The position numbers and the translations under genes were made by a program. DNA of 64,000 bases from contig OY726565.1 of NCBI GenBank assembly GCA_963383645.1, positions 31,244,534 through 31,308,533 on the forward strand. The letters run 5' to 3'. The notes under the pieces were generated by a model that had not been told where the DNA came from, ran no database searches, and saw nothing but the letters and a program-made list of their open reading frames with translations. Positions within the stretch are counted from its first letter, which is position 1; each line of letters begins with the position of its first letter. This DNA is from Muscardinus avellanarius. Lineage: Eukaryota > Chordata > Mammalia > Rodentia > Gliridae. Positions 4,611-62,638 of the stretch are shown here, one piece after another.

Positions 4611-5123
4611 ATCTCCAGGTTTAACTCAATTTTCCCCTCCTCTGGGAATAATCTAATCCTGAGGTCTCTTTTTGGTGCCACTGAGAGTTTTAAGGTTAAT
4701 ATGCTTTGTGGTTTAAGCCAGAAAAGATGAAAATTTTTTCACTAATTAAAGAATGACTTCCTTGATATTTGAAGTTTGAACTTTTCTGTTGTAGCTATCA
4801 TACTAAAATAAAATACTGATTCTGCTGAGATTAGAAAATGATAATAATCCAAGAAAACAAAACTGATTATACCACTTACACTACTACAACATTCACCCCT
4901 CTTTAACTTCTCTTGCTTAAGTTAATCATTCTTAAATTTTACTTATGTGAATGTAAAAAGGTATCTTTAATTATTCTTATTAAAGAAATGTACATCTATG
5001 AGGGCAGAGTTTTAGAAGTTGTTCCGCAAAGTTAAAAATCAATAAACTAACTTACCTCTAGGGATGTGAAAAGAAAACAAAGAGTTAAAAAATCCTAGAC
5101 AAATCAGAAACTGCTAACTATGG

Positions 5124-5327
5124 GGGGGGGGAGTAATTGGGATTGAATCCAGGGGCATTTACTTCTAATCTACAACCCTAGCCCTATTTTTTATTTTTAT
5201 TTTGAAACAGCGTCTCACTAAGTTGATGAGAGTCTCACTACTTGCTGAGGCTGTTCTCCATCCTATGATCCTTCAATCTCAGCCTCCCAAGTACTGGGAG
5301 CACAGGTGTGCACCACTAAGCCCAGCA
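5124..5327 (-). mobile_element. B1-ID SINE
   Basis: ATTGGGATTGAATCCAGGGG tail to CACCACTAAGCCCAGC head; a G-run lies at the tail side. Confidence 0.85.
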
Positions 5328-6920: not shown

Positions 6921-7276
6921 AAAGAATAATAAGACACAATAGTGACACAGGAGGATGGTGTGACCATGCTTGATGGGATCCCTCTCTTAGAATCTGTCTG
7001 TTGAGTTCCTGTCAATGGAGTACAGAGGAGAGCACAGATGCTGGGGATTAGACTTTGTGCTTTTGCCCCACTTCAAGATACCAAAAAATGTGTGTCTGTC
7101 ATGCCCCAGGCTATTTATAGTGAATCAAAATTTTTCATAAAATGGGTTTCTATACATGTAATTTAAAAAAAAAGGACATCTAACTCCAAGGTACTAATGA
7201 TCTCTTGTATCCTTATCCTTTTAGGGCTTTTTATAATTTGAGTACTAAACAGAATGTATCTGATAAAAATGAACAT

Positions 7277-8711: not shown

Positions 8712-8912
8712 GAACTGGTCGTGATGGCACACATTTGTAATCCCAGTACTTGGGAGGCTGAGACATCATAGGTTTGTGGCCAGCCTCAGCCTCTTAGGGA
8801 GACCACCCACAACTTAGTGAGACCCCGTTTCAAAATAATGAATAAAAAATATAGGCCTGGAGAGGTAGCTCAGAGGTATGGTGCTCCTAGGTTTATTCCT
8901 CAGTTCTGAAAA
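8712..8912 (+). mobile_element. B1-ID SINE
   Basis: ACTGGTCGTGATGGCACACA to TTATTCCTCAGTTCTG. Confidence 0.83.
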
Positions 8913-8959
8913 ATAATGACATGTTAAAGATTTCAATTAATTAATTAATTAATTAAATG

Positions 8960-9182
8960 TGTTGTACAGGGATTGAACCCAGGGGCATTCTACCTCCAAG
9001 ATATACCCCCAGACCTATTATTTTATTTATTTTTTGTTGTTGTTGTTGTTGTTTGTGGTACTGGGGATGGAACCCATGGGTGTTCTACCTCCAAGCTACA
9101 GCCTAACCCTATTTTTTCTTTTTTTTTTTTTTTTGGAAACCAGGGGAATTCTACCTCTGAGCTACACTCCCAGCCCCTATTT

Positions 9183-9233
<51 letters not shown>

Positions 9234-9319
9234 TGTGTGTGTGTGTTACTGGGGTTCCTGGAAACCCTTCTACCTCCAGGCTACACTCCCAGACCTATTT
9301 TATACTTTTTTCTTCCATA
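8960..9319 (-). repeat. Four consecutive ID-tail pieces without B1 heads
   Basis: ID-tail units lie at 8963-9020, 9055-9115, 9135-9180 and 9246-9300, each followed by T-rich or (GT)n sequence. No B1 head is seen between them, so they look like successive 5'-truncated insertions into older tails. Confidence 0.75.
9190..9246 (+). repeat. (GT)n microsatellite within ID array
   Basis: GT units with one GTAT interruption, lying between two ID-tail pieces. Confidence 0.97.
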
Positions 9320-11392
9320 TTTTATTTTATTTATAAGTTGAACATATTGAAAATGGTGTACATTTATTTAGATTGTGCTTTGTGCCCTCTCCCCTCCCAT
9401 TTCCCTTCCCCCTCCCAATAAAGAGTGTTCAGGTTAATCATGTTGCATTTATGCTATTACACATATTCATATGTAGCTCCTCCATTGAACAACCTCAGCT
9501 TTCTTCCTCTCCTATTCTTCCATTCTAGCTTTGCTGAAATTTCCCCTCCATCATCTGGAGTCCCTCTGGACTGGACTGGAGTCTAATACTCCCTAGCTTG
9601 GGCATATTAGAGAAAACATATGACACTTTTCTTTCTGTGCTTGACTAATCTCACTTAACATAATGTTCTCCAGGTCCTCCCATCTTCTTGCAAATGCTAT
9701 TATTTTATTCTTCTTTATAGCTGAATAGAATTCCATTGTGTGTCTTTCCCATAATTTTGCAATCCATTCATCTGTTGATGGAGATCTAGGTTGGTTCCAT
9801 ATTTTGGCTATTACAAACTGTGCTGCTATGAACATGGGTATGCATATGTTAACGTAGTTCTCTGATTTCAACCCCTTTGGAAAGATACCAAGGAGTGGTA
9901 TAGCTGGATCAAATGGTGGATCTATTCCCAGTTTCCTTTTTTTAAAATTATTTTTATTTTTTTCCCTTTGGTGGTACTGGAGTTCCTAGAAGCCTGTGTA
10001 CCTCTGGGCTACACTCCCAGACCTATTTTATACTTTTTTCTTGAAACAGTCTCTGGCTGGCTTTGAACCTGCGCCATCCTCCTGTCTCCGCCTCCCAAGT
10101 GCAGGGATTACAAGCGTGCACCACCATGCCCGGCTGTTCCGAGTTTTCTAAGAAATCTCCACACTGATCTCCATAGCGGCCGAACTACTTTGCATTCCCA
10201 CCAACAGTGTAAAAGAGTTCCTCTTTCCCAACATCCTTGCCAGCATTTGTTGTTTGATTTCTTTATGCTTGCCACTCTGACTGGGGTTAGATGGAATCTC
10301 AGCGTAGTTTTGATTTGCATCTCCCTGATGGCTAGTGATGTTGAACATCTTTTCATGTATCTATTGGCCATTTGTATATCTTCTTTTGTGAAATGTCTAT
10401 TCAGTTCAGTGGCCCATTTCTTGATTGGGTTGTTTTGCTAGTGTAGAGTCTTTTGAGCTCTTTGTATATTCTGGATATTATCCCTCTATCAGAGTGGTGG
10501 TTGGTAAATATCTTCTCTCATTCTGTAGGCTTCCTCTTTAGGTTCTTGATGGTTTCCTTTGATGAGAAGAAACGTTTTAGTTTGATGAATCCCACTTATT
10601 AATTCTTGCTTTTATTTCCTGCGCTTTGGAAGTCTTACTGAGAAAGTTACTCCCTGCGCCTATATGTTGGAGTGTTGATCCTATGCTTGTCTCTAATAAC
10701 TTCACAGTCTTTGGTTAATTTCTAAGTCTTTGATCCATCTCAAGTTGATTCCTGTGCATGGTGAGAAGTAAGGATTCAGATCCAACTTTCTACAAATGGA
10801 TAGCCAGTTCTCCCAGCACCATATGTTGAAAAGGCTGTGTTTTCTCCAGCATATGAGTTTGGCCCCTTTGTCAAAGATCAATTGACTATAGATGTGTGGG
10901 TTTGTTTCTGTGTCTTCTATTCTCTTCCACTGGTCAGTCTGCCTATTGTTGTGCCAATACCATGTTGTTTTTACTGCTATTGCTCTATAGTATAATTGTG
11001 ATGCCCCCTGCCTGGTTCTTGTTGCTGAGAATTGCTTTGGCTATTCTGGGTCTTTTCTTTCTCCATACAAAATTCATAACTGATTTTTCCAGGTCTATGA
11101 GAAATATTGTTGGGATTTTAATGGGAATTACATTGAATCTATAGATCACTTTTGGCAGAATTGCCATTTTGATGATATTTATTCTGCCTATCCATGAGCA
11201 AGGGGGATCTTTCCATCTTCCAAGGTCTTATTCAATTTCTTTCTTTAATGTTTTGTAGTTTTCTCTATAGAGGTTGTTTTACATCTTTGGTTAGGTTTAT
11301 TCCTAGGTATTTTATTGGTTTAGAGGTTATAGTAAATGGGATAGTTTTCTTTATTTCTTTCATTTTGGATTCATTGTTGGCATAGAAGAACC
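9320..11392 (-). mobile_element. 5'-truncated L1, antisense, with nested SINE
   Basis: On the minus strand this holds the 3' part of L1 ORF2 and the 3' UTR. Fragments read [14 protein letters not shown] (near 11100), [20 protein letters not shown] (about 10200-10262) and DEWIAKLWERHTMEFYSAIK (about 9722-9781). The tail end is near 9320-9345. Several frameshifts separate the pieces, so it is dead. A SINE (9944-10135) is inserted within it, and other SINE fragments abut both ends. Confidence 0.9.
9944..10135 (-). mobile_element. B1-ID SINE nested in L1
   Basis: It interrupts the L1 at TTCCCAGTTT/TTCTAAGAAATC. GGAGTTCCTAGAAGCC marks the derived ID tail, and the linker is shortened further than in other copies. 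Confidence 0.88.
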
Positions 11393-21530: not shown

Positions 21531-22401
21531 TTTCACTTTTTTTAAATTGGTGCATTGTAATCATATATCACATTGGAGTACAAGACTTGAGAGGATATAC
21601 AAGCACACATCATCAAATTAACCCTCATCCAGCCCCCATCCCATTCCTTCCCCCTCCCTCGATCCCATGCTTGTTTGGTGATTAACTTTGATACATTTGT
21701 TTATGTACCTCCTGTGTTTTAAAGAGGCTCCATCCTCCCCTATTCCATACCCTCTGATTGGTCACCTTAATTGCTTCACTATAGGACCCTTTCTATAGCT
21801 CGACCTCTTCCTGTTGCCCCTTTCCTCCTAGTTATTGCTGATTAGGGGAAGCATCTGATTTTATTTTCTGCGATATTTCTCTGTGCATGCCGCGTGGCAA
21901 GTACAGATCCCACTCTTGACGGCCCCAGTAGTGGCCTGGCTACCCGGTGGACTGATCCAGACCTCACTGGCTCAAGCAGCGGCTTTGCCTCATGGGAGGC
22001 CCTGATTCTGATCTCTCTGGTCCCGACACCAGCCTAACCCCTCGGCTAGCTCCGATCCAGGCCTTGGAGGCCCCAGCACCGGCCTAGCCTCACAGCAGGC
22101 TCTGATCCCGGCCTCGCTGGCCCCAGCACCAGCCTAACTCCTCGGCAGGCTCCGATCCCAGCCTCAGAGGCCCCAGTAGCGGCCTTGCCTCCTGTCAGGC
22201 TCTGATCCCGGCCTCGGAGGCCCCAGCACCGGCCTTGCCTCACGATGAGCTCCGATCCCGGCCTTGCTGGCCCCGGCACCGGCCTAACCCCTCAGCAGGC
22301 TCAAATCCAGCCTCAGAGGCCCCAGCACCGGCCTAGCCCCACGGCAGGCTCCAATGCTGTCCATTGGCCCCAGCACCGGCCCAACCCCTTGGCAAACTTG
22401 A
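21531..22401 (-). mobile_element. VNTR-composite retroelement, 5'-truncated copy (A)
   Basis: Read on the minus strand, this has about ten 50-bp monomers (22400 down to 21905), the same 3' domain (CCTCTGATTGGTCACCTTAA in + orientation, 21753-21772) and a tail near 21540. It is flanked by GATAAGAGATTTT (21518-21530) and GATAAGATATTTT (22402-22414), a 13-bp repeat with one mismatch. It shows the family is dispersed and not a tandem duplication of intron 9. Confidence 0.8.
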
Positions 22402-23343: not shown

Positions 23344-24434
23344 CTGAGTTAGCATTTTTTTATTATGAAGAATTATAGTGTACATTTTGGAAAAATGACA
23401 TTTAGGGAGTTTAGTGATGATCCTGTGTGGCTTAAAATATATACAGTGTTCCCCTCCTAATGCCTAAACTATTCTTTTTCTACATGTCCCTTCTAAATTA
23501 CCACCATATTCTAAAGCCGTCTCTAGTTTTATCTTTTTTTGAGATTATTTTATAAATCCTATTCAATCACATTTCTAAAATTTGACTTTTTAATCACACA
23601 AGTAACAATATTGCATTGAAAAACTACAGATTATTGTTTGAGGACTTCCGGGAAGATGGCAACCGAGAAAAGCGGGGCTTAAGAGCCCCGCTAACAACCA
23701 ATCTCCATTACCACAAAATCAGCGCCTTTCATAGCCAGAAAACACCATCACCAGAGAAACAAAAAAATCACCAGGCTCCAGAGAGAAAGCGGACTGAGAA
23801 CAGAGGTCAGAGCCACAGAGGAGATACACCGGCCTCAAGCCCAAGGACGCGGCAGCAGCGCCATACTGCCAGCGGCAGCGGCAAATTCACCGGACAGCTA
23901 CAGCAAGCCGAGGTGAGCCGCTGCGGAACAGCCAGGTGGGATTTCTCGCCGCAGGTAAAATCTAAAGCTCCCAGTGGCTGAGCTCAGCACACGCCGCAGG
24001 GATTCAGGGTGGAAATCAAAACCAAGAAGAAATACGCCAGCCTCACGGCCGAGGGTGTAGCAGCAGCGCCATATTGCCACTGGCGGCAGCAGCAGAGAAT
24101 TCACCGAGTCCAGTACACCTACATCTGCGTACTCAAGAACAGTGAGTCAAATTGTGGGCCACAGAGGAGAAATACCAGTACTGTACTCCCTGGGACTTGA
24201 CCCAGTGGGGGAGTGGCGGTGGCAGAGATATTACACCATAGGAGAATGTGCAACCTGGCACCCCCCACAGTCTAAAGCAGCCTCTATAGACTCTCTGGGT
24301 CAGAGACTCTGTGATACAACCCAGTAAAGGAGTAGTGGGGTCTGAGATAATACTGACTCGAGATCCAGAACACCTTAAGTGAAGTCATAGTGACCCAAGG
24401 GAAGAACCCAGAGAAGACACAAACTTCCGAAATC

Positions 24435-25345
24435 ATGGGAAAGAGGAATAACAACGGAGCAATGAATGCCCACAGCCCCACAACATCAGAACCCGATAAA
24501 ACAGAAAATCAGAGATTTCTAGAAGATCAAATCAGGAAAATAACTGTAGAAATAGTAGAGGTGCTTCGAAAAGAACTCAGAGAGAGCCAAAAAGAGATAA
24601 AGGAGGCAATTAATGAAGTAAAGGCCTCAATTCAAAGCACAAACAACTGATTAGACCACATGGAGAACAGAATCTCGCTCTTAGAAGATGATCATACCAA
24701 AAATGAACGCATAGTTTCTAATCTAGGAAAAAATATCCGACAGCAGGAATCTGACATTGAAGAAATATGGGCCCATTTTAAGAGAGCTAACCTAAGAATA
24801 ATTGGAATAGAGGAGGGAAAAGAAAGTGAAACCAAAGGGATCAACAATCTCTTCAAGGAAGTAATAGCAGAAAATTTTCCAAACATAGAGCAAGAGGTTG
24901 ATACAAAGGTCCAGGAAACTTATAGAACTCCCTTTAGACAGGATCGGAGAAGAGGATCCCCACGCCACATAATTGTCAAAATGACCAATGTGGAAGCCAA
25001 GCAGAGAATCTTAAAGGCAACAAAAACAACGGGCCAAGTGACATTCAGAGGCAAGCCAATTAGAATCACTCCAGACTTCCCAAACCAAGTCACGAGAGCC
25101 AGAAGGGCTTGGAGTAACATATTCCCAATTTTGAAAGAAAACAACTTCCAGCCAAAAATTTCCTACCCAGCAAAACTTTCTATCAAATTAGATGGAGAAA
25201 TAAGAAGCTTCCACAACAAACAGAAACTGAAGGAATTTATGTCTTCAAAACCAGCACTAGAGAAAATACTCAAAGAGATTAACTACAAAGAAGAAATAGG
25301 TAACACACACCAGAACCAGAGAAATGAGTTTCCATCCAACAGTCA
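24435..25345 (+). pseudogene. L1 ORF1p coding region with one in-frame stop
   Basis: ORF1p is the RNA-binding chaperone of L1 particles. The start MGKRNNN at 24435 is followed by a charged heptad-rich coiled coil, then an RRM-like segment (HFKRANLRIIGIEEG near 24774; RGSPRHIIVKMTNVEAKQR near 24951) and the C-terminal domain (NNFQPKISYPAKLS near 25140). A TGA at 24648-24650 interrupts the coiled coil; the frame is the same on both sides, and it could be CpG decay of an Arg codon. After about 25345 the frame stays open to 25433 without L1 similarity I can see. Confidence 0.85.
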
Positions 25346-25539
25346 ACTAAGATTGGTTATCTGTGGAGATTCATTACTTATGTTAGTCTTTTACCTATCT
25401 CTAAATGGTATTGTTTGCCTTTATTGTTGTTAATTTTTAGGATTTCCAGTTGGAATATTAATATACCTTCAGATATAGCATTTGGAAGTATTTTATCCCA
25501 TTCTATTAGTAACTGTTAACTCTGTTTACATTGTCTTTG

Positions 25540-26060
25540 GATATACAATATTTTTTTTTATTTTTTAGGGAGTTTGTATACTCTTCTGTTGCCTGTGCCA
25601 TTGAAATCATATCCAAGAAATCACTGCCAATTTCAGTGTTGTGAAGTTTTATGACCCAGATTTTCTTCTAAAAGTTTATAGTCTTAAGATTTATATTTAG
25701 GTCTTTTATCTATTTTGAGTTAATATTTGTATATGGGATTAGGTAAGGGTCCAACTTTATTCTTTTCCATGTAATTATTATGTTTCAGCAATATTTAGTT
25801 AAAAGATTATTATTTCTACCACCAAATGTTCGTGGAAACCTTGTCAAAACTTGACAATATATGGAAGAATTTAGCTCTAGGCTTTTATTTAACTCCAATG
25901 GTTTATATATCTGCCTTTAGAATAGTACTACACTGTTTCAATTATTGTAGCTTTATATGGTTTGAAATCAGAAAATATATATCTTCTAGCTTTGTTCTTT
26001 TTCAAGATCATTTTGGGTATCTAGAGTCCATTTTCCATATTAGGATAGATTTTTTTTTTC
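25540..26060 (-). repeat. Old antisense L1 ORF2 fragment
   Basis: On the + strand the text reads like the complement of L1 ORF2 (TTTTATCTATTTTGAGTTAA near 25707, TATTGTAGCTTTATATGG near 25943). It is more diverged than the ORF1 region beside it. It lies between the ORF1 part and the 3' end of the 23629-26419 element. Confidence 0.65.
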
Positions 26061-26663
26061 TGAAAAATAAATATATAAATATATGATAGTTTCACCTAAA
26101 AAAATAGAAAAAAAATATTCTCTGGTAAGAAAGAAAGTAAAAAGAAATATTGAAATGTTATCTTTAAGTCATCAAAAGCTTGGTATCAGACAAATGAAAC
26201 TGTTATGTGAGATTATCATTTTTAATTTTGGATAAATTGCTATAATACTAGATGTCAACCACTAAGCCAAGCATGGGAGGGAGGGATGGGGAGAGAATGG
26301 GGTGGGGATCGGGTGGGGGCTGACTGGGCGATGTGTGAATGTATGTCTACAAAAGTTTGTATCCCACTATGATTGATGAATACAGTGCACCAATAAAAAA
26401 AATAATAATAAAAAAGAAAGAAAAACTACAAAATGTAAGTGATCAAATTAATAATTATTCATAATTCCAGAAATAATTACTTATATGGTCATATTTTAAG
26501 TAATTCTCTTTTATGTGTGAACACAAAATTTAAAAACCATAACAAAATGACTAATTTTGATTCTTCCTCTTCTACCCACATTTACATGGCATTTTTAATT
26601 TAGTTGTATTGCATTTACATATATCCTGTTCTGCAAATGCCCTGTACTTTTATTGTTGTTTTT

Positions 26664-27170: not shown

Positions 27171-28019
27171 ATTTATTTCCATTATCAACTTTGTTTGCGA
27201 ACACTGACTTTTCTTTTTTTTACGAATATGAAAGTCATCATATGCAGCTTATTTTCAAAATCACCGAATCACTGTTTTTACATTACAGATGGTTTTTGCT
27301 ATGTGACAAAGGACGAAGAAGGGAAGCAAAGAATGGACATTGTACTGGAAGGAGAAGCAGGAAGCGGCATTCTGATTAGTCTTCCTTCTTTCTTCACTAA
27401 CCAGCTGTGTGTAGTGTGTGGCTAGTAACTTACCTTCCCACATAAACCAAGTAGGAAGGAAGAGGACATCTCGTTCAACCGGGTTTAACAGATAAGTCTA
27501 AAAGGCTTGTACAAGATACAACGTGGCAGAGGCTCAGCCAACTCCTGGCTCAGAGTGTTGTTTGTTCTGAATCACACTACCAGTCCTTGAACAAATGTTT
27601 ACTGAAGCCTAGTGTATTAGGCTTTCCGTAGCACTGTTTCCGTTCGGGTTTGATTATTGGCTTTATTTCCTCCCTAATAGTTCCCACGCAGCAACTTTTA
27701 ATTGCCCTTAGAATCAGAGTTAAAGGGGTAGGGAGGGAGGGGGACTCGTGCCAGCCTGGTGTCGGGCACCAGGTGGTGTGACCCGGGTCGGCAGCTGGTC
27801 CCACAGTGGCGATCTATCTAAGACAGTGACGCTCCGGGCCAGGGAGTGACTGACCGACTCTCGGATAACCCGAGTGCACAAGCGAGCCAGACACGTCTCA
27901 CGGAGAAGACGCCTTTGGTTTTCCATGACTCCACTGCTAGGATTCGGGGGGGGGAGGGGAGACCTTTTCCTGTGCAAAATCCCTAAGTATTCAGCTGTTG
28001 AGAGCGGTGATCCCATATC

Positions 28020-28830
28020 CTAGGCATCCCGGTCTTCTCTACCCCGAGTCATCCTCCCAGTACTCTAGCAGCCGGGTAGGCGCTTCTACCTGGGCGGCGG
28101 GTGACGGCGGGAGGGCCGCCTCGCCGCCTCCGGCCTCCAGTACCCCCGCAACCTCTCTCCGTCCCGCGGCCCCAAGGCCGGCGGGGTCAAGTTCCTCTGG
28201 GACGCCAGGGAAAGGCCACAGATGGGGTGCGGCCAAGCTAGGCCTGCTGGGCAGCCACCAGCCAATCGTCTTGAGGCATACACACTCGCCAGCCAATCAG
28301 CGCCAGGCTTGTTCCAGCGTCCCGCCCGCCCGGGTACCGACTCCCCGCCCGCCTCCAGGTACCCGTAGACGCGGCTGTGGTGGCAGCCGCCTCGGAGCTG
28401 ACCCGGGCCTGGGGACCGGCCGCTCCTGGCGCCGCTTGCACTGTCCGGTTGTTTTCACTGAGGATGAGTTCGTGCGAAGCTCTGTGCCGACCCCGCGGAG
28501 ACCGCCGGCGCAGTTTCATCTAGCGACTGGTGAGCCGGGGCTCGGCCGGCGGGCCCACGGCGCGGGGCGGGCGGAGGCGATGGCGTCCCGCCAGCCCGGG
28601 GCGCGGGAGGGCCTGGGGCTCCTGGTGCGGTGGCGGCGGACGCCTGCGGCGCGGGACGACCGCGGGGAGGGGTCCGCGGGGCGAGGTCGCCGGGAGCCGG
28701 CCGGGGCGATCCCCCGCGCCGCCCCGCTTTGAATGGCCGGCCCGGGACGGCGACGTCGAGGCTCCGCGGGGCACGCCCTCCGGCGCCGCCAGGCTGGGAG
28801 CGGTGCCCGTGTCACTTCGCTCTGAGCCTC
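28020..28830 (+). promoter_or_regulatory. IBTK: CpG-island promoter of IBTK
   Basis: This stretch is strongly GC- and CpG-rich in an otherwise AT-rich window and lies directly upstream of and across exon 1. It has no TATA box. Two CCAAT boxes on the + strand (28262-28266 and 28293-28297) sit 31 bp apart, a spacing often seen for paired NF-Y sites, and GC boxes follow near 28562-28575. These features fit a broad housekeeping promoter starting somewhere downstream of 28300. CpG islands often fire in both directions; I see no supported gene on the minus strand. Confidence 0.85.
28400..28529 (+). other. IBTK: IBTK exon 1, non-coding (5' boundary estimated)
   Basis: The best donor in the CpG island is GACTG|GTGAGC with GT at 28530-28531, so the exon would end at 28529. 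The 5' boundary is a guess. The next supported acceptor is at 36041, before exon 2. No start codon that would fuse in frame to the protein is needed here, since the conserved N-terminus is encoded in exon 2. Confidence 0.6.
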
Positions 28831-29734
28831 ATCATTTAAAGCCTTTCCTGGAGGAGCCAGTCCCCCTTATCGCCTGCGTGGAGTCCCAAAGTTTGAGTCC
28901 ACTCTGGGGATGCTGACTGCAGGTTGTGAGCTAGGTGTGAATTGGCCGCTATGTAAAAAGTGGCCGGTACCTTTTTGGGGGAAGTGTAGGAGACAGAAAG
29001 GTTTTATGTTCTTACCTGTCAGGTTCAAAACGTTTTAATTGAAATGCGAAATAGTTACCAAGCCAAAAGCCATCCTTGGTTGTTTTTCAGCTTAGTTGTA
29101 GGAATTCATTGTGTTAGATGGGATATTTTTCAGAAAGCTGAGACTGATAGCACCTTTTCTCCTGTGCCTCGAAGTAGGGCATTTGGAATTAAAATTTTAT
29201 CAGAAACACTGAAAGGATGTGACTTTTCTGAGTGGGTGGTTTCTCTAATTATAACATGGTGCACATTTCGCAAGCTTGATCATTTCCCTCCTTTTCCCAT
29301 TTGAATTCTTGATTTTTGTTTTAAAAGGTGAAATAAGGTAGGTGAGGACAGAGAGGTGTTTTCAAAAGAGTATTATAGCATTTGCAAAACCTTAGTCACA
29401 CCACAGTTTAAGGTTTAAAAATGAATGTGTTCCATTAAAATAACTTGTTTTAAGGACTCAGTATACTTAATTCTATATAAGAAGCTTGTTACACTTTAAC
29501 CCTCAAAATGCTTTTGGACTATAATGTTGACTAGACTATAAGACTATTCAGTTTACTTGGTTGTTATAAATGATACAAAACTAGTTTACCGTAATAAATA
29601 GAATAATGCTTTGCTATGTCCAGAGATGTGCCTAGCCTGTCTGGAGCATTTTCTCTAAAATTAATTAATTAATTAATTAATATTTCTACATCTTGTGCCC
29701 AATGAATATTTTTAAAACATTAAATAAAATATAA

Positions 29735-36165: not shown

Positions 36166-36408
36166 AGAACTTGTATTTGATATGAACTTTATAGAACTAT
36201 TTATAATTTTTTTATTTAAGTGCCAAAACGATTATACAGAGATATATAGTTTTATACTATTGCCACGAGGACTTAAATTATAATCTCAAAAGGGTCATTT
36301 ATTCTCTATAATTCTTTTTTGAATAGCACCTTTGTGTCCTGGCTTTTCATTTTTAAAAATTAGACTTGTGACTATTTTGAAGAACTAAGCAGTATAAAAA
36401 CAATTAGG

Positions 36409-36729
36409 ATGAATTCTCCCATCCCTGACTGCACATCAAAATGTCAGTCTCTGAAGCATGCTTTCGATGTCCTTTCTGTTATAACAAAGGGGAGTGAAAA
36501 CCAGATTAAAGCCTTTCTCTCTAGTCACTGTTACAATGCTACAACTATCAAAGATGCCTTTGGCAGGAATGCCCTTCATCTTGTTTCTTCCTGTGGAAAG
36601 AAAGGAGTGTTAGATTGGCTTGTTGAAAAAGGAGTGGATCCACTGGTAAAAGACAAGGAGTCAGGCTGGACAGCATTGCACAGAAGCATCTTTTATGGAC
36701 ATATTGATTGTGTTTGGACTCTCTTGAAG
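36409..36729 (+). CDS. IBTK: IBTK exon 2 coding part, residues 1-107
   Basis: The start codon at 36409 has A at -3 and begins a reading frame matching the conserved IBTK N-terminus (MNSPIPDCTSKC...). Residues about 51-80 form a first ankyrin repeat (GRNALHLVSSCGKKGVLDWL) and residues about 85-107 the start of a second (GWTALHRSIFYGHID). The exon closes in phase 0 at the donor AAG|GTAAGT. Ankyrin repeats here serve protein binding. Reading past the donor gives intronic residues, so the longer open frame to 36852 is not the exon. Confidence 0.95.
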
Positions 36730-36810
36730 GTAAGTGTCATTTGTTTATTTAAAACTCATTATGCATATATTTTCTTAATCTTTTTTATACATCCACTTCC
36801 TTTTTTTTTA

Positions 36811-36991
36811 ATGTGGTACAGGGGGTTGAACCAAAGAATATTTCACCTCTGAACTATACCCCCAGCCCTCTTTTATTTTTTGTTTTGAAACAGGGTCTCA
36901 TTAGGTTGCTGAGGTTGTCCTCAAATGTATAATCCTCCTGTCTCAGCCTCCCAAGTACTAGGATTACAGGTGTGTGCCACCGCGCCTGGCT
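36811..36991 (-). mobile_element. B1-ID SINE, intron 2
   Basis: GGGGGTTGAACCAAAGAATA to CACCGCGCCTGGCT, 80 bp after the exon 2 donor. Confidence 0.86.
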
Positions 36992-55349: not shown

Positions 55350-55473
55350 ACAATTAAACTTGAAAAAGGTTCTTGTATCAGGGGGTCGTATGGAATACAA
55401 GGTTGATCCTCAACATTTGAAAGAAAATGGGGGCGAAAAAATCTGCATTCTTGCAATGGATGGAGCTGGAAGA
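55350..55473 (+). CDS. IBTK: IBTK exon 9, residues 375-416
   Basis: The acceptor TTTCCACCCAG ends at 55349. The exon completes Lys375 and encodes QLNLKKVLVSGG, then ENGGEKICILAMDGAGR, ending in phase 0 at donor AGA|GTGAGT. It is followed by the 7.5-kb intron 9, which holds two copies of the VNTR-composite element. Confidence 0.94.
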
Positions 55474-55579
55474 GTGAGTATTATTATTTATGTTTAAATA
55501 ATGTTAAAATAAGTTTATTAATGTTATTTTCAGTTGACAGTTATAAGATATCTAAGAGTGTAAAAAAATTTTGCCATGG

Positions 55580-56680
55580 GATCGGAGCCAGCTGATGCAT
55601 TAGGCCAGTGCCGGAGCCAGCGAGGCTGGGAATAGAGCCTGCCGATGGGTTAGGCCGGTGCCAGGGTCAGTGAGGCTGGGATTGGAGCCTGCCTTGAGGT
55701 GTGGCCGGTGCTGGGGTCTCGAGGCTGGGATCGGAGCCTACTGAGGGGAGAGGTTAGTGCCGGGGCCAACAAGGCCAGGACTGGAGCCTGCCGTGTGAGG
55801 CAAGGCCGCCACTAAGGCCTCCGAGGCAGAGATTGGCGCCAGCCGAGGGGTTAGGCCGGTGCCAGGGCCAGCAAGGTTGGGATCGGAGCCTGCCGTGAGG
55901 CAAGTCTGGTGCTGGGACCTACGAGGCCGGGATCGGACTCTACCGAGGGATAAGGCTGGTGCCAGGGCGAGTGAGGCCGGGATCGGAAACTGCTGTGAGG
56001 CAAGGATGGAGCTGGGACTTGCGAGACCAGGATAGGAGCCTGCCAAGGGGTTAGGCCGGTGCCAGGGTCAGCAAGGCCGGGATCGGAGCCTGTTGTGAGG
56101 CTAGGCCGGTGCTGGGGCCTCTGAGGCTGGGAGAGGAGCCAGCCGAGGGGTTAGTTCGGTGCAGGGGCCAGAGAGGCCAGGATCAGGGCCTTCCATGAGG
56201 CAAGGCTGGTGCTGGAGTCAGCGAGGTCGGGATCAGAGTCCTCCGGGTGGCCAGGCCACTACTGGGGCCGTCAAAAGTGGGATTGGAACTTGCAATACGG
56301 CATGCACAGAGAAATAGCACAGAAAATAAAATCCAGATTCTTCCCCTAATTAACAAGAACTAGGAGGAAAGGGGTAACAGGAGGAGGTCGAGTTGTAGAA
56401 AGGGCCCTATTGAAAAGCAATGAAGGTGACTAATCAGCAGGGAGGGGATGGGGAGGATGGAATCTCTTTAAAACTCATGAGGTATGTAAACAGTTATATC
56501 AAAGATAATCACCAGTTAAGCATGGGATCGAGGGAGGGGGAGGGAATGGGATGGGGATTGGATGAGGGCTTATTGGATGATATGTGCTTGTATATCCTCT
56601 CAAGTCTTGTATTCCAAAGTGATGTATGATTACAAAAATAAAATAATAATAAATAATTGCCACAAAAATAAAGATAAAAA
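55580..56680 (+). mobile_element. VNTR-composite retroelement, 5'-truncated copy (B)
   Basis: The copy starts inside the repeat array (about 14 monomers, 55580-56290), then has the same 3' domain as copy C (CATGCACAGAGAAAT..., 56299 onward) and an A-rich tail near 56635-56690. The leader and module are absent, as expected for 5' truncation. It sits in IBTK intron 9 in the gene's sense direction. The target-site duplication is unclear: an A-rich sequence with TTGCCA follows the tail at about 56650, and a better match lies at 56961-56977. Confidence 0.8.
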
Positions 56681-58117: not shown

Positions 58118-58899
58118 AAATCTCCACACTGATCTCCATAGTGGCTGAACTAGCTTGCACTCCCACCAGCAGTGTAAAAGGGTTCTTCTTTTCTCACATA
58201 CATGCTAGGATGTTGTTATTTGACTTCTTTATGCTTGCCACTCTGATTGAGGTTAGATGGAATCTCATGTATCTATTGGCCATTTGTAGCTCTTTTGTGT
58301 GAAGTGTCCGGATCCATCATATGATCTGGCTATTAACTCCTGGGTATCTTTACAAAGGGGTTGAAATCAGAGAACTACAGCAAGATATGCATACCCATGT
58401 TCATAGCAGCACAATTTACAATAGCCAAATTATAGAACCAACCTAGGTCTCCATCAACAGATGTATGGATTGCAAAATTATGGGAAATACACACAATGGA
58501 ATTCTACTCAGCAATAAAAAAGAACAAAATCATATCATTCGCAAGAAGATGGAAAGACCTGGAGAACATTATGTTAAGTGAGATCAGCCAACCACAGAAA
58601 GAGAAGGGACATGTGTTTTCTCTAATATGCCCAAACTAGGGACTATTAGGAATACCAGAGGGACTCCAAATAATGGAGAGGCACCTCAGCAAAGCTGAAA
58701 TGGAGGGTAGGAGAAGAAGAGGGCTGAGGTTGATTAATGGAGGAGCTACTTCTAATATGTGTAAAAGTATGAATGTAGCATGGTCAACCTGGACACTTAT
58801 TGTTGCAGGGTGAGGGAAAGTGGGGAGAAGGGAACCAAGCACAGTCTGAATGTATGCCATTTTCAATATGATACATATAAAAACAAAAAAATTAAAAAT
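58118..58899 (+). mobile_element. L1 3' end with inverted 5' segment (twin priming)
   Basis: Bases 58118-58312 match L1 ORF2 in antisense (compare 10150 onward), and 58313-58899 match the L1 3' end in sense (GAGAACTACAGC, then CACACAATGGAATTCTACTC). The sense part ends in an A-rich tail. AAATAAAAATAG occurs just before (58106-58117) and just after (58900-58911). This is the usual signature of twin priming. Copy C of the VNTR element begins 50 bp further on. Confidence 0.8.
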
Positions 58900-59134
58900 A
58901 AATAAAAATAGGATAATGTTTTTTGAGCTCTAAAAAGTTCTGTAAAATTTTGATATTCTATAGACCCCTGGAGAAACCGGGCCCAGTAAGATGCTGGGTT
59001 CTGGGCAGGGGTCGCGCGCGGGGCACGCCAGCCGGGCCCGGGTCGCGGGACTCTGGGCCCCAGGCCGAACTGCGCGTAGCACGCCAGACCCCTGGAAAAA
59101 CCGGTCCCAGAACAGAAAAAGAAAAAGAAAAATA

Positions 59135-59595
59135 TCGGAGAGGAGGTAAGAAAGCCGTTATGGATGCCAGGACACTGGAGATGCAGACAAAACTTATCTA
59201 AATGCACTGGAACTTATGGAAAAATTTGCCGTAAAAGAGGACTGCTATTTCTCTATATTGTTAAGAATCTCAAACATCACCTGTAAGGAGAGAATTTAGC
59301 GGAGACCAAGGAGAAATGCTGTGTTGAAAGAGTTCTCCGCGATGGTGGTGGAGACTTGTATTCAGGAGAAGCAGAAATCGGATCCTACCAACTTTATTTT
59401 TTTGGAGAAATTACACCAAATGTCGAATGCTACCATGACGCATGCTTAGGAACACTGGACAACATTCAGAGTGGAAAAAGAGCCTGGGAAGGATTTGAAA
59501 TGGTGGAGGCAGTGGCAATGCCAATGGCCAATACTCAGGGAAGGCAGAGATCTGATACATTACACCTGGAACCTTTGAAATAATAACCACAGAGA
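59135..59595 (+). other. Unidentified module in 5' domain of copy C
   Basis: This non-repetitive stretch joins the GC-rich leader to the VNTR. Its base composition differs from both neighbours. It has short broken frames, including one at 59356-59583 (75 codons) and another preceding frame starting at 59161. I do not recognise any domain. It could be a captured exon or cDNA piece of a host gene, or an old retroelement part. Confidence 0.5.
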
Positions 59596-59599
59596 CAGT

Positions 59600-61445
59600 G
59601 ATCGGAACCTGCTGAGGGGTTAGGCGGGCACCGGGGCCAGTGGCTGACATCGGAACTTGCTGTGATGCAAGGCCACTACTGAGGCCTCCGTGGCCGGGAT
59701 TGGAACCTGCCGAGGGGTTAGACCGATGCTGGGGCCAGTGAGGCCGGCATTGGAGCCTGCCGTGAGGCAAGGCCGGTGCTGGGGCCTCCAAGGTCGGGTC
59801 CGGAACCTGCTGAGGTGTTAGGCTGGTGCTGGGGCCAGTGAGGCTGGCATCGGAGCCTGCCGTGAGGCAAGGCCGGTACTGGGGCCTCTGAGGCCAGGAT
59901 AATAGCCTGCCGAGGGGTTAGGCCGGTGCTGGGGTCAGCGAGGCCGGCATCGGAGCCTGCCGTGAGGCAAGGCCGGTGCGGGGCCTCCGAGGATGGGACC
60001 GGAGCCTGCTGAGGGGTTAGCCAGTGCTGGGGCCAGCGAGGCCGGCATCAGAGCCTGCCATGAGGCAAGGCCGATACTGGGGCCTCCGAGGTCAGGATAA
60101 GAGCCTGCCGAGGGGTTAGGCCGGTGCTGGCGCCAGTGAGGCCGGCATCAGAGCCTGCCATGAGGCAAGGCCGGTACTGGGGCCTCCGAGGCTGGAATAA
60201 GAGCCTGCTGAGGGTTAGGCCGGTGCTGGGGCCAGCGAGGCGGGCATCGGAGCCTGCCGTGAGGCAAGGCCGGTGCTGGGGCCTCCTAGGCCGGGATCGG
60301 AGCCTGCCGAGGGGTTAGGCCGGTGCTGGGGCCAGTGAGGCTGGCATCAGATCCTGCCATGAGGCAAGGCCGGTACTGGGCCCTCCTAGGCCAGGATCGG
60401 AGCCTCCCTTGAGGCAAGGCCGGTACTGGGGCCTCTGAGGCCAGGATAAGAGCCTGCTGAAGGGTTAGGCCGGTGCTGGGGCCAGCGAGGCCGGCATCGG
60501 AGCCTGCCGTAAGGCAAGGCCGGTGCTGGGGCCTCCAAGGCCAGGATAATAGCCTGCTGAGGGGTTAGGCCAGTTCTGGAGCCACTGAGGCCGGCATCGC
60601 AGCCTGCCGTGAGATATGGCTGATGCTGGGACCTCCGAGGCCAGTATCGGAGCTGGACAAGGGGTTAGGCCAGTGCTGGGGCCAGCGAGGCCGGCATCAG
60701 AGCCTGCCGTGAGGCATGGCCGGTGCTGGGGCCTCTGAGGCCAGGATCGGAGCCTGCTGAGGGGTTAGGCCGGTGCTTGGGCCAGTGAGGCCGGCACCGG
60801 AGCCTGCCATGAGGCAAGGCTGGTATTGGGGCGTCCGAGGCCGGGATTGGAGCCTGCCGAGGGGTGTGGCAGGAGCTGGGGCCAGTGAGGCCGGCATTGG
60901 AGCCTGCCGTGAGGCAAGGCCGGTGCTGAGGCCTCCGAAGCCGGGATCGGAGCCTACCTTGAGGCAAGGCCGGTACTGGGGCCTCCGAGGCCAGATAAGA
61001 GCCTGCTGAGGGGTTAGGCCGGTGCTGGGGCCAGTGAGGCCGGCATCGGAGCCTGCCGTGAGGCGAGGCCACCATCGGAGCCTGCCGTGAGACATGGCCA
61101 GTGCTGGGGCCTCCTAGGCCAGGAACGGAACCTGCCAAAGGGTTAGGCTGGTGCTGGGGCCAACGAGGCTGGCATTGGAGCCTGCCGTGAGGCTAGGCCG
61201 GTGCTTGGGGCCTCCGAGGTCGGGATTGGAATCCTGCTAAGGGGTTAGGCCGGTGCAGGGGCCAATGGCCGGCATGGGAGCCTGGCGTGAGGCAAGTTCA
61301 CTCCTGCAGCCTCCAAGGCCGGGACCAAAGCCAGCTTAGGGGTTAGACCGGTGCAGGGGCCAGCGAGACCAGAACTGGGGCCTCCCATGAGGCAAGGCCG
61401 CTGCTTGAGCCAGCGAGGTCTGGATCAGTCCACTGAGTAGCCAGG
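59600..61445 (+). repeat. VNTR of copy C: 50-bp monomers in 100-bp dimers
   Basis: Two related 50-bp half units alternate, one containing GGGGTTAGGCCGGTGCTGGG and one containing GAGGCAAGGCCGGTGCTGGG, so the period is 50 with a stronger period of 100. Units differ by scattered substitutions and small deletions; in some places two of the second type follow each other. GC and CpG content is far above the intron around it. The long open frames here come only from the repeat lacking stops. Confidence 0.9.
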
Positions 61446-62638
61446 CCACTACTGGGACCATCAAGAGTGGGATCGGTACTTGCAACGCAGCATGCACAGA
61501 GAAATATCACAGAAAATATAAATCAGACGCTTTTCTTAATCAGCAATAACTAGGAGGAAAAGGGCAACAGGAAGAGGTTGAGCTATAGAAAGGGCCCTAT
61601 AGTGAAGCAACAAATGTGACCAATCAGAGGGTATGTAATACTGGAGGATGGAGCCTCTTTAAAATGCTGGAGGTACATAAACAAATGTATCAAAGTAAAT
61701 CACCAAAGAAGCGTGGGATGGAGGGAGGGGAAGGGAATGGGATGGGGGCTGGAGGAGGGCTAATTGGATGATGTGTGCTTGTATATCCTCTCAAGTCTTG
61801 TACTCCAATGTGATTGATATATGACTACAATGCACCAATTTAAAAAATAAATTATTAAAAAATATTTTTCAAATAAAAAATTTTGATATTCTAGAAATTG
61901 TTTTAATCATAACATTGCACCTACTGGCTTATTATAGGTATAAGAAGTTCTGCTACTGAAAATTTTAATAAGAAGGAACTCAATCATTTTGTGTATGAAA
62001 ATAGCTTTTTTGCATGACCTAGGCAGGTGCCGTTTTGTGCTTTTGTTTTTTAAACTTGATTATAAGGGATTTAGAGTTTAAAAATCAACAGTTTTCCTTT
62101 TTTCAAATGAAATCATACTTGGGACATCTATATAGGAACATATGAAAGAGTTGCTGCTCTGGATAATACCGGCTAGAGAAGGCTGACCCCTCTCTCATCA
62201 TTCCCTCCATCTTTTAGCAGTAATCTCTGATTCACTTTTCAGTACCACTAGGTTTGCAGAACCATTTGGAACCACTGTACTAGCTATAACTTTTTCTGAC
62301 TCTAAAACTTTGTTTCAGTTATATATTTGAGTTACGCATATATCTGCTTTTGTTTCTTGAGAACAAACTGGATTTTTATTGGGTGATTCTTCATCTTCTC
62401 ATAAATAGATGACTACAGGAAACCTGACATCTTAAGTTTTGGTTTTAAAATTTTGTTTTTTTTTAGCATTGTAGAAGATCTATTTACCTCAAGCAATATT
62501 GAAGATTATTTCTTAAGAAGAGTGCCTGTAATAATTTTTAATGCTTCATGTTTGCTTAATGTACTTTCCTAAAAGACATAGTTCTTTAAAATCATATTGA
62601 CTTTGGAGATCAATGAGCTAATTAGAACTTTAATTTTT

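What the first reader, a model, noticed from the sequence alone, without database searches (positions are those of the whole stretch)
58944..61893. SVA-like composite retroelement in a squirrel-type genome, complete with target-site duplication
Seen: a 17-bp perfect direct repeat (AAAATTTTGATATTCTA) encloses GC-rich leader, unknown module, 1.85-kb VNTR, L1-like 3' domain and A-rich tail. Known: hominoid SVA, LAVA and relatives have this build and move by L1. Inference: rodents of this lineage have an independent VNTR-composite family mobilised by their own L1. The perfect duplication suggests a recent insertion. I know of no described rodent element with this structure, but cannot search.
Basis: partly seen in the sequence, partly recalled or inferred. 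Interest (0 to 1): 0.9.

Follow-up and report, generated by a model that had tools for sequence, protein, structure and literature searches.

The report
Rodent SVA-like composite jumping element
This stretch is one copy of a dispersed family of roughly 3-kilobase repeats in a likely squirrel-group rodent genome, made of a repeated GC-rich start, an unidentified middle piece, a long 50-base tandem array and the tail end of the L1 jumping gene, and it likely spreads by borrowing L1's copying enzymes, a build that the papers I saw describe as special to apes.

Summary
A perfect 17-nt duplication encloses a GC-rich leader, a module, an alternating 50+50-bp VNTR, an L1-derived 3' end and an A-rich tail. 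The window's own genome is held. The leader+module query gave 3,852 first-look candidates; 40 of 40 scored match (own place 100%, the rest 96-97%). I read 20 of the other 39, and 20 of 20 have the same order of parts. Exact duplications of 10 nt or more flank 16 of 21 copies (11.7% of mismatched flank pairs); 18 of 21 with a wider search. Twelve of 17 sites read T|AA, as L1 endonuclease sites do. Six of 16 rejoined sites match uninterrupted repeats. The leader is a 125-bp tandem monomer, truncated at different points. The last ~340-377 nt align with L1 3' ends. Copies read differ from consensus by 0.2-2%, and the genome has a young L1 with open ORF1s. I read it as a non-autonomous VNTR composite retroposon, likely moved in trans by L1. 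It works like SVA/LAVA but lacks their CT-hexamer/Alu-like head: a separate assembly. No paper listed in my searches describes one outside apes; Repbase and Dfam were out of reach and the species is not established. Mobilisation in trans, promoter function and the origins of leader, module and VNTR are inferred or open.

The parts
58944..58960 (+). 5' target-site duplication AAAATTTTGATATTCTA, preceded by T (T|AAAA)
58961..58961 (+). one extra base at the 5' junction, not in the monomer consensus; of the 4 copies that start at this monomer position 3 have G here, this one has T
58962..59085 (+). leader: one 124/125-bp GC-rich monomer; other copies carry about 1.2 to 5 tandem monomers
59086..59110 (+). 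partial next monomer (25 nt, 92% to 58962-58986) joining leader to module
59111..59600 (+). module of unknown origin, about 486 bp, stops in all three forward frames, no Pfam match over cut-off, no Rfam match, no convincing PDB match
59605..61405 (+). VNTR, about 36-37 units of about 50 bp, two alternating types (100-bp dimer)
61406..61469 (+). decayed VNTR-like units joining VNTR to the L1-derived part (by reading)
61470..61846 (+). 3' domain colinear with the end of L1 (ORF2 end / 3'UTR): from 61470 against one L1, from 61507 against the other
61838..61876 (+). A-rich 3' tail
61877..61893 (+). 3' target-site duplication
21538..22396 (-). older copy, 5'-truncated inside the VNTR; tail 90.8% to the given copy; 13-nt duplication with 1 mismatch
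55577..56635 (+). still older copy, 5'-truncated inside the VNTR; tail 80.7% to the given copy; no clear duplication

Best explanation
The feature at 58944-61893 is a copy of a young, dispersed composite element (125-bp leader monomers, 486-bp module, alternating 50-bp VNTR, L1-derived 3' end, A-rich tail) that is likely non-autonomous, likely transcribed from its GC-rich leader array and likely inserted by L1 proteins acting in trans. Shown: the family, the fixed order of parts, separate target duplications, T|AA insertion sites, 5' ends that fall at different points of the leader array, rejoined sites that match uninterrupted repeats, extra sequence between tail and duplication in some copies, the L1-derived 3' end, and a young L1 in the same genome. 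Inferred: that the leader monomers are RNA polymerase II promoters; that the RNA is bound by L1 ORF2p at its A-rich tail and copied by target-primed reverse transcription; that VNTR length changes arise by slippage or recombination. Untested: whether the L1-like 3' domain is needed for recruitment.
For: Family: 40 of 40 scored candidates (of 3,852 at first look) match the 640-nt query, own place 100% and 39 others 96-97%; 20 of 20 regions read have leader-module-VNTR-tail in order. Duplications: exact repeats of 10 nt or more in 16 of 21 and of 13 or more in 14 of 21, against 11.7% and 1.2% of 420 mismatched flank pairs; L033 (16 nt) and L048 (15 nt) were found on widening the search. Cut site: of 17 copies tabulated, 14 have T before the duplication, 14 begin with AA, 12 have both (recounted; the L1 motif TT|AAAA is recalled). 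Rejoined flanks: 6 of 16 tested sites match held DNA across the junction; best, L050 against window 25644-25132, 94% over 515 nt, and L049 inside an L1 ORF2 against L039, 86% over 432 nt. 5' ends: 17 copies start at scattered monomer positions, but 4 share one (simulated chance 0.0012), 3 of them with an extra G as a reverse-transcribed cap would leave (the cap reading is recalled). 3' domain: local alignment scores 193 and 200 against L049 and L050 L1s, maxima of 200 shuffles 54 and 45. Youth: non-CpG divergence from consensus 0.22-1.73% in 21 modules, 1.95% for this copy. Helper: the PF02994 search gave 38,950 first-look candidates; 150 of 150 scored are over the cut-off and 122 have a 329-residue open frame (my count).
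Against: No expression or mobilisation data. L035 has no clear duplication, L044 only 9 nt, L031 18 nt with 2 differences by eye. The copies read are the best matches to this one, so age and completeness are biased towards young, full-length copies. Identity of the 3' domain to L1 was measured only against two older L1s: 68% and 69% of aligned bases, 69-75% over the last 145-177 nt of L1-type ends. The 3' end of the young L1 was not obtained: the guessed stretch L052 matched nothing. Ten of 16 rejoined sites had no spanning match in the held 254 kb. The simple source for L033's extra 3' segment failed.
Confidence: 0.9

Rival explanations
1. It is a deletion derivative of an L1 in this genome: the leader monomers, module and perhaps VNTR are that L1's own 5'UTR, joined to its 3' end after loss of ORF1 and ORF2. 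It would still be moved by L1, but would be an L1 derivative and not an independent composite.
For: The 3' domain is L1-derived; tandem GC-rich leader monomers resemble the tandem promoter monomers of mouse L1 (recalled); another L1 derivative, with ORF1, exists in the same window.
Against: Neither leader nor module matches the L1-type 5'UTR at window 23637-24434 or the 323 nt before ORF1 in a young L1 (L051). Only that stretch of one young L1 was read, so monomers further upstream or in another L1 family are not excluded; a genome search with the leader alone did not complete.
Confidence: 0.2
2. Copies spread as DNA: satellite or segmental duplication of a tandem-repeat locus.
For: VNTR is a tandem array; L044 holds two copies 3.6 kb apart.
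Against: Copies lie on many contigs, start at different points, end in A-rich tracts and are bounded by separate target duplications.
Confidence: 0.02
3. It is a true relative of SVA/LAVA, shared by descent or transfer with hominoid elements.
For: Same general order: 5' domain, GC-rich VNTR of about 50-bp units, variant 3' domain, A tail.
Against: No CT hexamer array is reported in the element, no Rfam family matches 58500-62300 at E up to 1, and the 3' domain is of this genome's L1 type. The VNTR units were not aligned with SVA units here.
Confidence: 0.02

Closest known systems
SVA (SINE-R-VNTR-Alu), hominoid primates
   Same: Composite, central GC-rich VNTR of 30-50 bp units of variable number, L1-type insertion hallmarks, extra 3' sequence in some copies (SVA 3' transduction is recalled)
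   Different: No CT-hexamer/Alu-like 5' region; tandem 125-bp GC-rich monomers instead; 3' end from L1, not from HERV-K SINE-R (definition seen in passages of PMC4432496)
LAVA, PVA, FVA, gibbon VNTR composites
   Same: VNTR composites with different 3' domains; LAVA is named L1-Alu-VNTR-Alu (PMC7353768, start of abstract in listing)
   Different: They share SVA's CT/Alu-like 5' region (PMC4432496 passages), absent here; different host group
L1 5'UTR tandem-monomer promoters of mouse L1 (recalled)
   Same: Tandem GC-rich monomers at the 5' end, truncated at variable points
   Different: Monomer sequence is not found before the two L1-type ORF1s looked at here; no ORFs follow
HAL1 / half-L1 (name recalled)
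   Same: L1-derived 3' end without ORF2, presumably moved by L1
   Different: HAL1 keeps ORF1; this element has none. A HAL1-like element lies at window 23637-26417

Membership tests
Hominoid VNTR composites (SVA/LAVA/PVA/FVA) | 5' CT-hexamer plus Alu-like region shared by all four families (PMC4432496, passages) | tested here: not met
   5' part is a GC-rich 125-bp monomer; no CT hexamer array reported by Tandem Repeats Finder in the element; no Rfam match at E up to 1. Not aligned with Alu directly
Hominoid VNTR composites (SVA/LAVA/PVA/FVA) | central GC-rich VNTR of 30-50 bp units, copy number varying between elements | tested here: met
   two alternating 50-bp units, 629-5172 bp in 21 of 21 copies, median 1827
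Hominoid VNTR composites (SVA/LAVA/PVA/FVA) | mobilised by L1 in trans in a cell assay | not testable with these tools
   only hallmarks seen
L1-mobilised non-autonomous retroposon | separate target-site duplications of about 7-20 nt (range recalled) | tested here: met
   exact 10 nt or more in 16 of 21, mismatched control 11.7% of 420
L1-mobilised non-autonomous retroposon | insertion at TT|AAAA-like sites and A-rich 3' end | tested here: met
   T|AA in 12 of 17; A-rich tract before the duplication
L1-mobilised non-autonomous retroposon | no reverse transcriptase of its own | tested here: met
   longest listed ORF in the window copy 157 aa, antisense in the VNTR; two module frames and one leader frame without Pfam match over cut-off. 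VNTR frames were not scanned
L1-mobilised non-autonomous retroposon | shares its 3' end with a partner L1 | tested here: inconclusive
   clear homology to older L1 ends (scores 193 and 200 against shuffle maxima 54 and 45); the young partner's 3' end was not obtained
L1 / HAL1 | ORF1 and/or ORF2 | tested here: not met
   no ORF of that size in the window copy; leader and module do not match the L1-type 5'UTRs looked at
Pol III SINE | tRNA-, 7SL- or 5S-derived head with A and B boxes | tested here: inconclusive
   no Rfam match at E up to 1; boxes not scanned

The most novel reading that the evidence does not exclude
VNTR composite retroposons, held to be a hominoid invention, arose independently in a rodent lineage from L1's own 3' end plus a home-made tandem-monomer promoter and a two-letter VNTR. 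The family has run from old (about 80% tail identity) to near-identical copies and is still moving: one young copy carries a 133-nt 3' extra segment whose only other genomic place (C12) has no composite in front of it, as expected if the source element is an insertion polymorphism.
Probability: 0.55. Interest if true: 0.85.

Novelty: new variant of a known kind. Interest (0 to 1): 0.75.

Why it matters
VNTR composites are described as specific to hominoid primates (starts of the abstracts of PMC4432496 and PMC7353768, seen). A second, separately assembled case lets one ask which features L1 needs: both lineages have a GC-rich VNTR in the middle and their own 3' end, but this one lacks the hexamer/Alu-like head that is the minimal active part of human SVA (PMC4432496, passage), and carries an L1-type 3' end. 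It would also place mutable, GC-rich, likely promoter-bearing insertions across a non-primate genome; two copies in this window would lie in sense orientation within what I recall as one gene.

Tried and rejected
Module as a known gene or RNA: three forward frames read; Pfam best E 0.033, below cut-off; PDB best E 0.18; Rfam none at E up to 1. Its origin stays unknown.

Leader or module from L1 5'UTR: no match to window 23637-24434 or L051. L052, aimed at the young L1's 3' end by a guessed distance, matched nothing, so the young partner's 3' end is open.

Source of L033's extra 3' segment: 2 places in the genome, its own and C12:84042454-84042586, 100% over query 10-142. A search with tail plus segment did not return C12 among 40 scored of 1,784 candidates, and the 12 bases before C12:84042454 are not composite tail. 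So a source copy standing at C12 in this assembly is not supported; either the source is absent from this assembly (polymorphic or lost) or the reverse transcriptase switched templates. The search with the L043 segment did not complete, nor was one with the tail alone (first, last).

Viral contigs as a source of stray related DNA: one 26-mer of the module, 0 matches (that tool may leave out near records). Papers: I saw nothing on rodent VNTR composites in the rows listed (20 of 291 papers; 20 of 229; 20 of 8,028; 20 of 286; 15 of 33; 15 of 25; 15 of 601; 8 of 156; 10 of 53); (10 of 7,750) looked for a host genome. Only passages were read, in PMC5857283, PMC13174262 (plus its outline and abstract), PMC4432496, PMC5007689 and PMC4982230. 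Repbase, Dfam and other rodent genomes could not be searched. Host name: chromosome numbering suggested a guess from memory; not tested and not claimed.

Full report
What was checked. The sequence at 58944-61893 was read. The 17-mer AAAATTTTGATATTCTA is exact at both ends; the only other window matches have 3 mismatches. Between the copies lie a GC-rich leader, a 42% GC module, a VNTR of period 50/100 and a 42% GC 3' part ending in A-rich sequence.

A family. The window's genome is held (G000, 2.497 Gb, 104 contigs; window at C8:31244534-31308533). Leader plus module as query gave 3,852 first-look candidates, 40 scored; all 40 matched essentially the whole query, the own place at 100% and the others at 96-97%. 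In 20 of 20 the order is leader monomers, module, VNTR, tail. L044 also holds a second copy cut by the region's end; it is counted only in the module and leader alignments. A tail-plus-extra query gave 1,784 candidates and 40 scored; besides the own place, 39 of 39 match the tail at 97-99%. First-look candidates are not confirmed copies, so copy number is not measured.

Anatomy. The leader is a 125-bp monomer in tandem, about 1.2 to 5 monomers per copy, with 25 nt of a further monomer leading into the module. The VNTR alternates two related 50-bp units (ABAB...), 629-5172 bp in 21 copies, median 1827. The first 45-80 bases of the 3' part look like decayed VNTR units; the rest, from 61470 or 61507 to 61846, is colinear with the ORF2 end/3'UTR of two L1s that happen to lie beside other copies (L049, L050), at 68% and 69% of aligned bases. 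The module has no recognised relative.

Insertion. Exact repeats of at least 10 nt join the two flanks in 16 of 21 copies, at least 13 nt in 14 of 21; in 420 mismatched pairs the shares are 11.7% and 1.2%, longest 14. Looking up to 500 nt past the tail in the 5 copies left adds L033 (16 nt) and L048 (15 nt); that wider search had no control of its own. Of the rest, L044 has 9 nt, L031 18 nt with two differences (by eye), L035 none clear. Twelve of 17 tabulated sites read T|AA. With one duplication removed, the rejoined L050 site matches window 25644-25132 at 94% over 515 nt, and the rejoined L049 site, inside an L1 ORF2, matches L039 at 86% over 432 nt; 6 of 16 sites tested had any spanning match in 254 kb of held DNA. 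These are related repeats, not the same site in another species, so they are analogues of the empty site.

5' ends. Starts fall at scattered monomer positions, as 5' truncation or start at different monomers would give. Four of 17 share one position, with an extra base (G, G, G, and T in this copy); chance of such a coincidence 0.0012 by simulation. I read this as a preferred transcription start with cap-derived G (inference; the cap effect is recalled).

3' extras. L033 carries 153 nt between tail and duplication, ending in a second A-run; L043 138 nt; L048 270 nt, holding a second partial tail; L046 140 nt of A/T only or nearly so; L044, L050 and L040 81, 55 and 40 nt. For L033 the segment occurs once more, at C12, 100% identical over 133 nt, without a composite in front. 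This fits 3' transduction from a source absent in this assembly, or template switching; it does not fit a source copy standing at C12.

Age. Non-CpG divergence from piecewise consensus: module 0.22-1.73% in 21 copies and 1.95% in the window copy; tail 0.24-1.93% in 20 and 1.19% in the window copy. The sample is of best matches, so it shows that young copies exist, not the age profile. Two older 5'-truncated copies in the window have tails at 90.8% and 80.7% to the given one, so the family likely has a long history.

Helper. L1 ORF1 (PF02994) gave 38,950 first-look candidates; all 150 scored are over the cut-off and 122 have a 329-residue open frame (counted by hand). In one of these the 323 nt before the start codon match neither leader nor module. 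Loss of LINE and/or SINE activity has been reported in a ground squirrel (Platt and Ray 2012, as cited in a passage of PMC5857283); in this genome, whatever its species, many open ORF1 frames remain.

Mechanism and rank. Best reading: polymerase II RNA from the leader array, taken up in trans by L1, target-primed insertion (0.9). The main rival is that the 5' parts come from an L1 5'UTR not yet seen (0.2, partly overlapping). Membership in SVA/LAVA is rejected on the missing CT/Alu-like head; likeness in build and likely in way of moving stays. I rate it a new variant of a known kind; the libraries that could already name it were out of reach.

Noticed in passing
window 23637-26417 (+): HAL1-like element: L1-type 5'UTR, ORF1 (Transposase_22 and dsRBD domains; one internal stop), a piece that I recall as antisense L1 ORF2-like, then L1 3'UTR; 13-nt flanking repeat with 1 mismatch. 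Relatives in L050, L046, L044, L041 at 87-94% over 192-1022 nt. A composite copy (L050) sits inside one.
   Followed up: partly
L048, after the first tail (oriented 5052-5321), and G000:C5:62411938-62412574 (-): Two loci share a doubled tail (full tail, short A-run, second partial tail), as if one source element carried a neighbouring tail along and gave rise to both.
   Followed up: partly
window 36364-36849 and about 55350-55475 (+): Ankyrin-repeat exon and a later exon that I recall as the gene IBTK (the 40-residue exon had no Pfam match); the composite copies at 55577 and 58961 would lie in its introns in sense orientation. Gene name not tested.
   Followed up: partly
window 28001-29000: GC 0.70 block, likely the CpG island of that gene.
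   Followed up: no
G000, places: A uniform young L1 family with 329-residue ORF1 open frames, 122 of 150 scored; the 323 nt before ORF1 in one copy do not match the 5' part of the HAL1-like element.
   Followed up: partly
L036 near oriented position 7100: A run of N, assembly gap or withheld stretch, in the flank of a composite copy.
   Followed up: no
L038, oriented about 8890-9498: An open frame that I recall as retroviral gag-like in the flank; only seen, not pursued.
   Followed up: no
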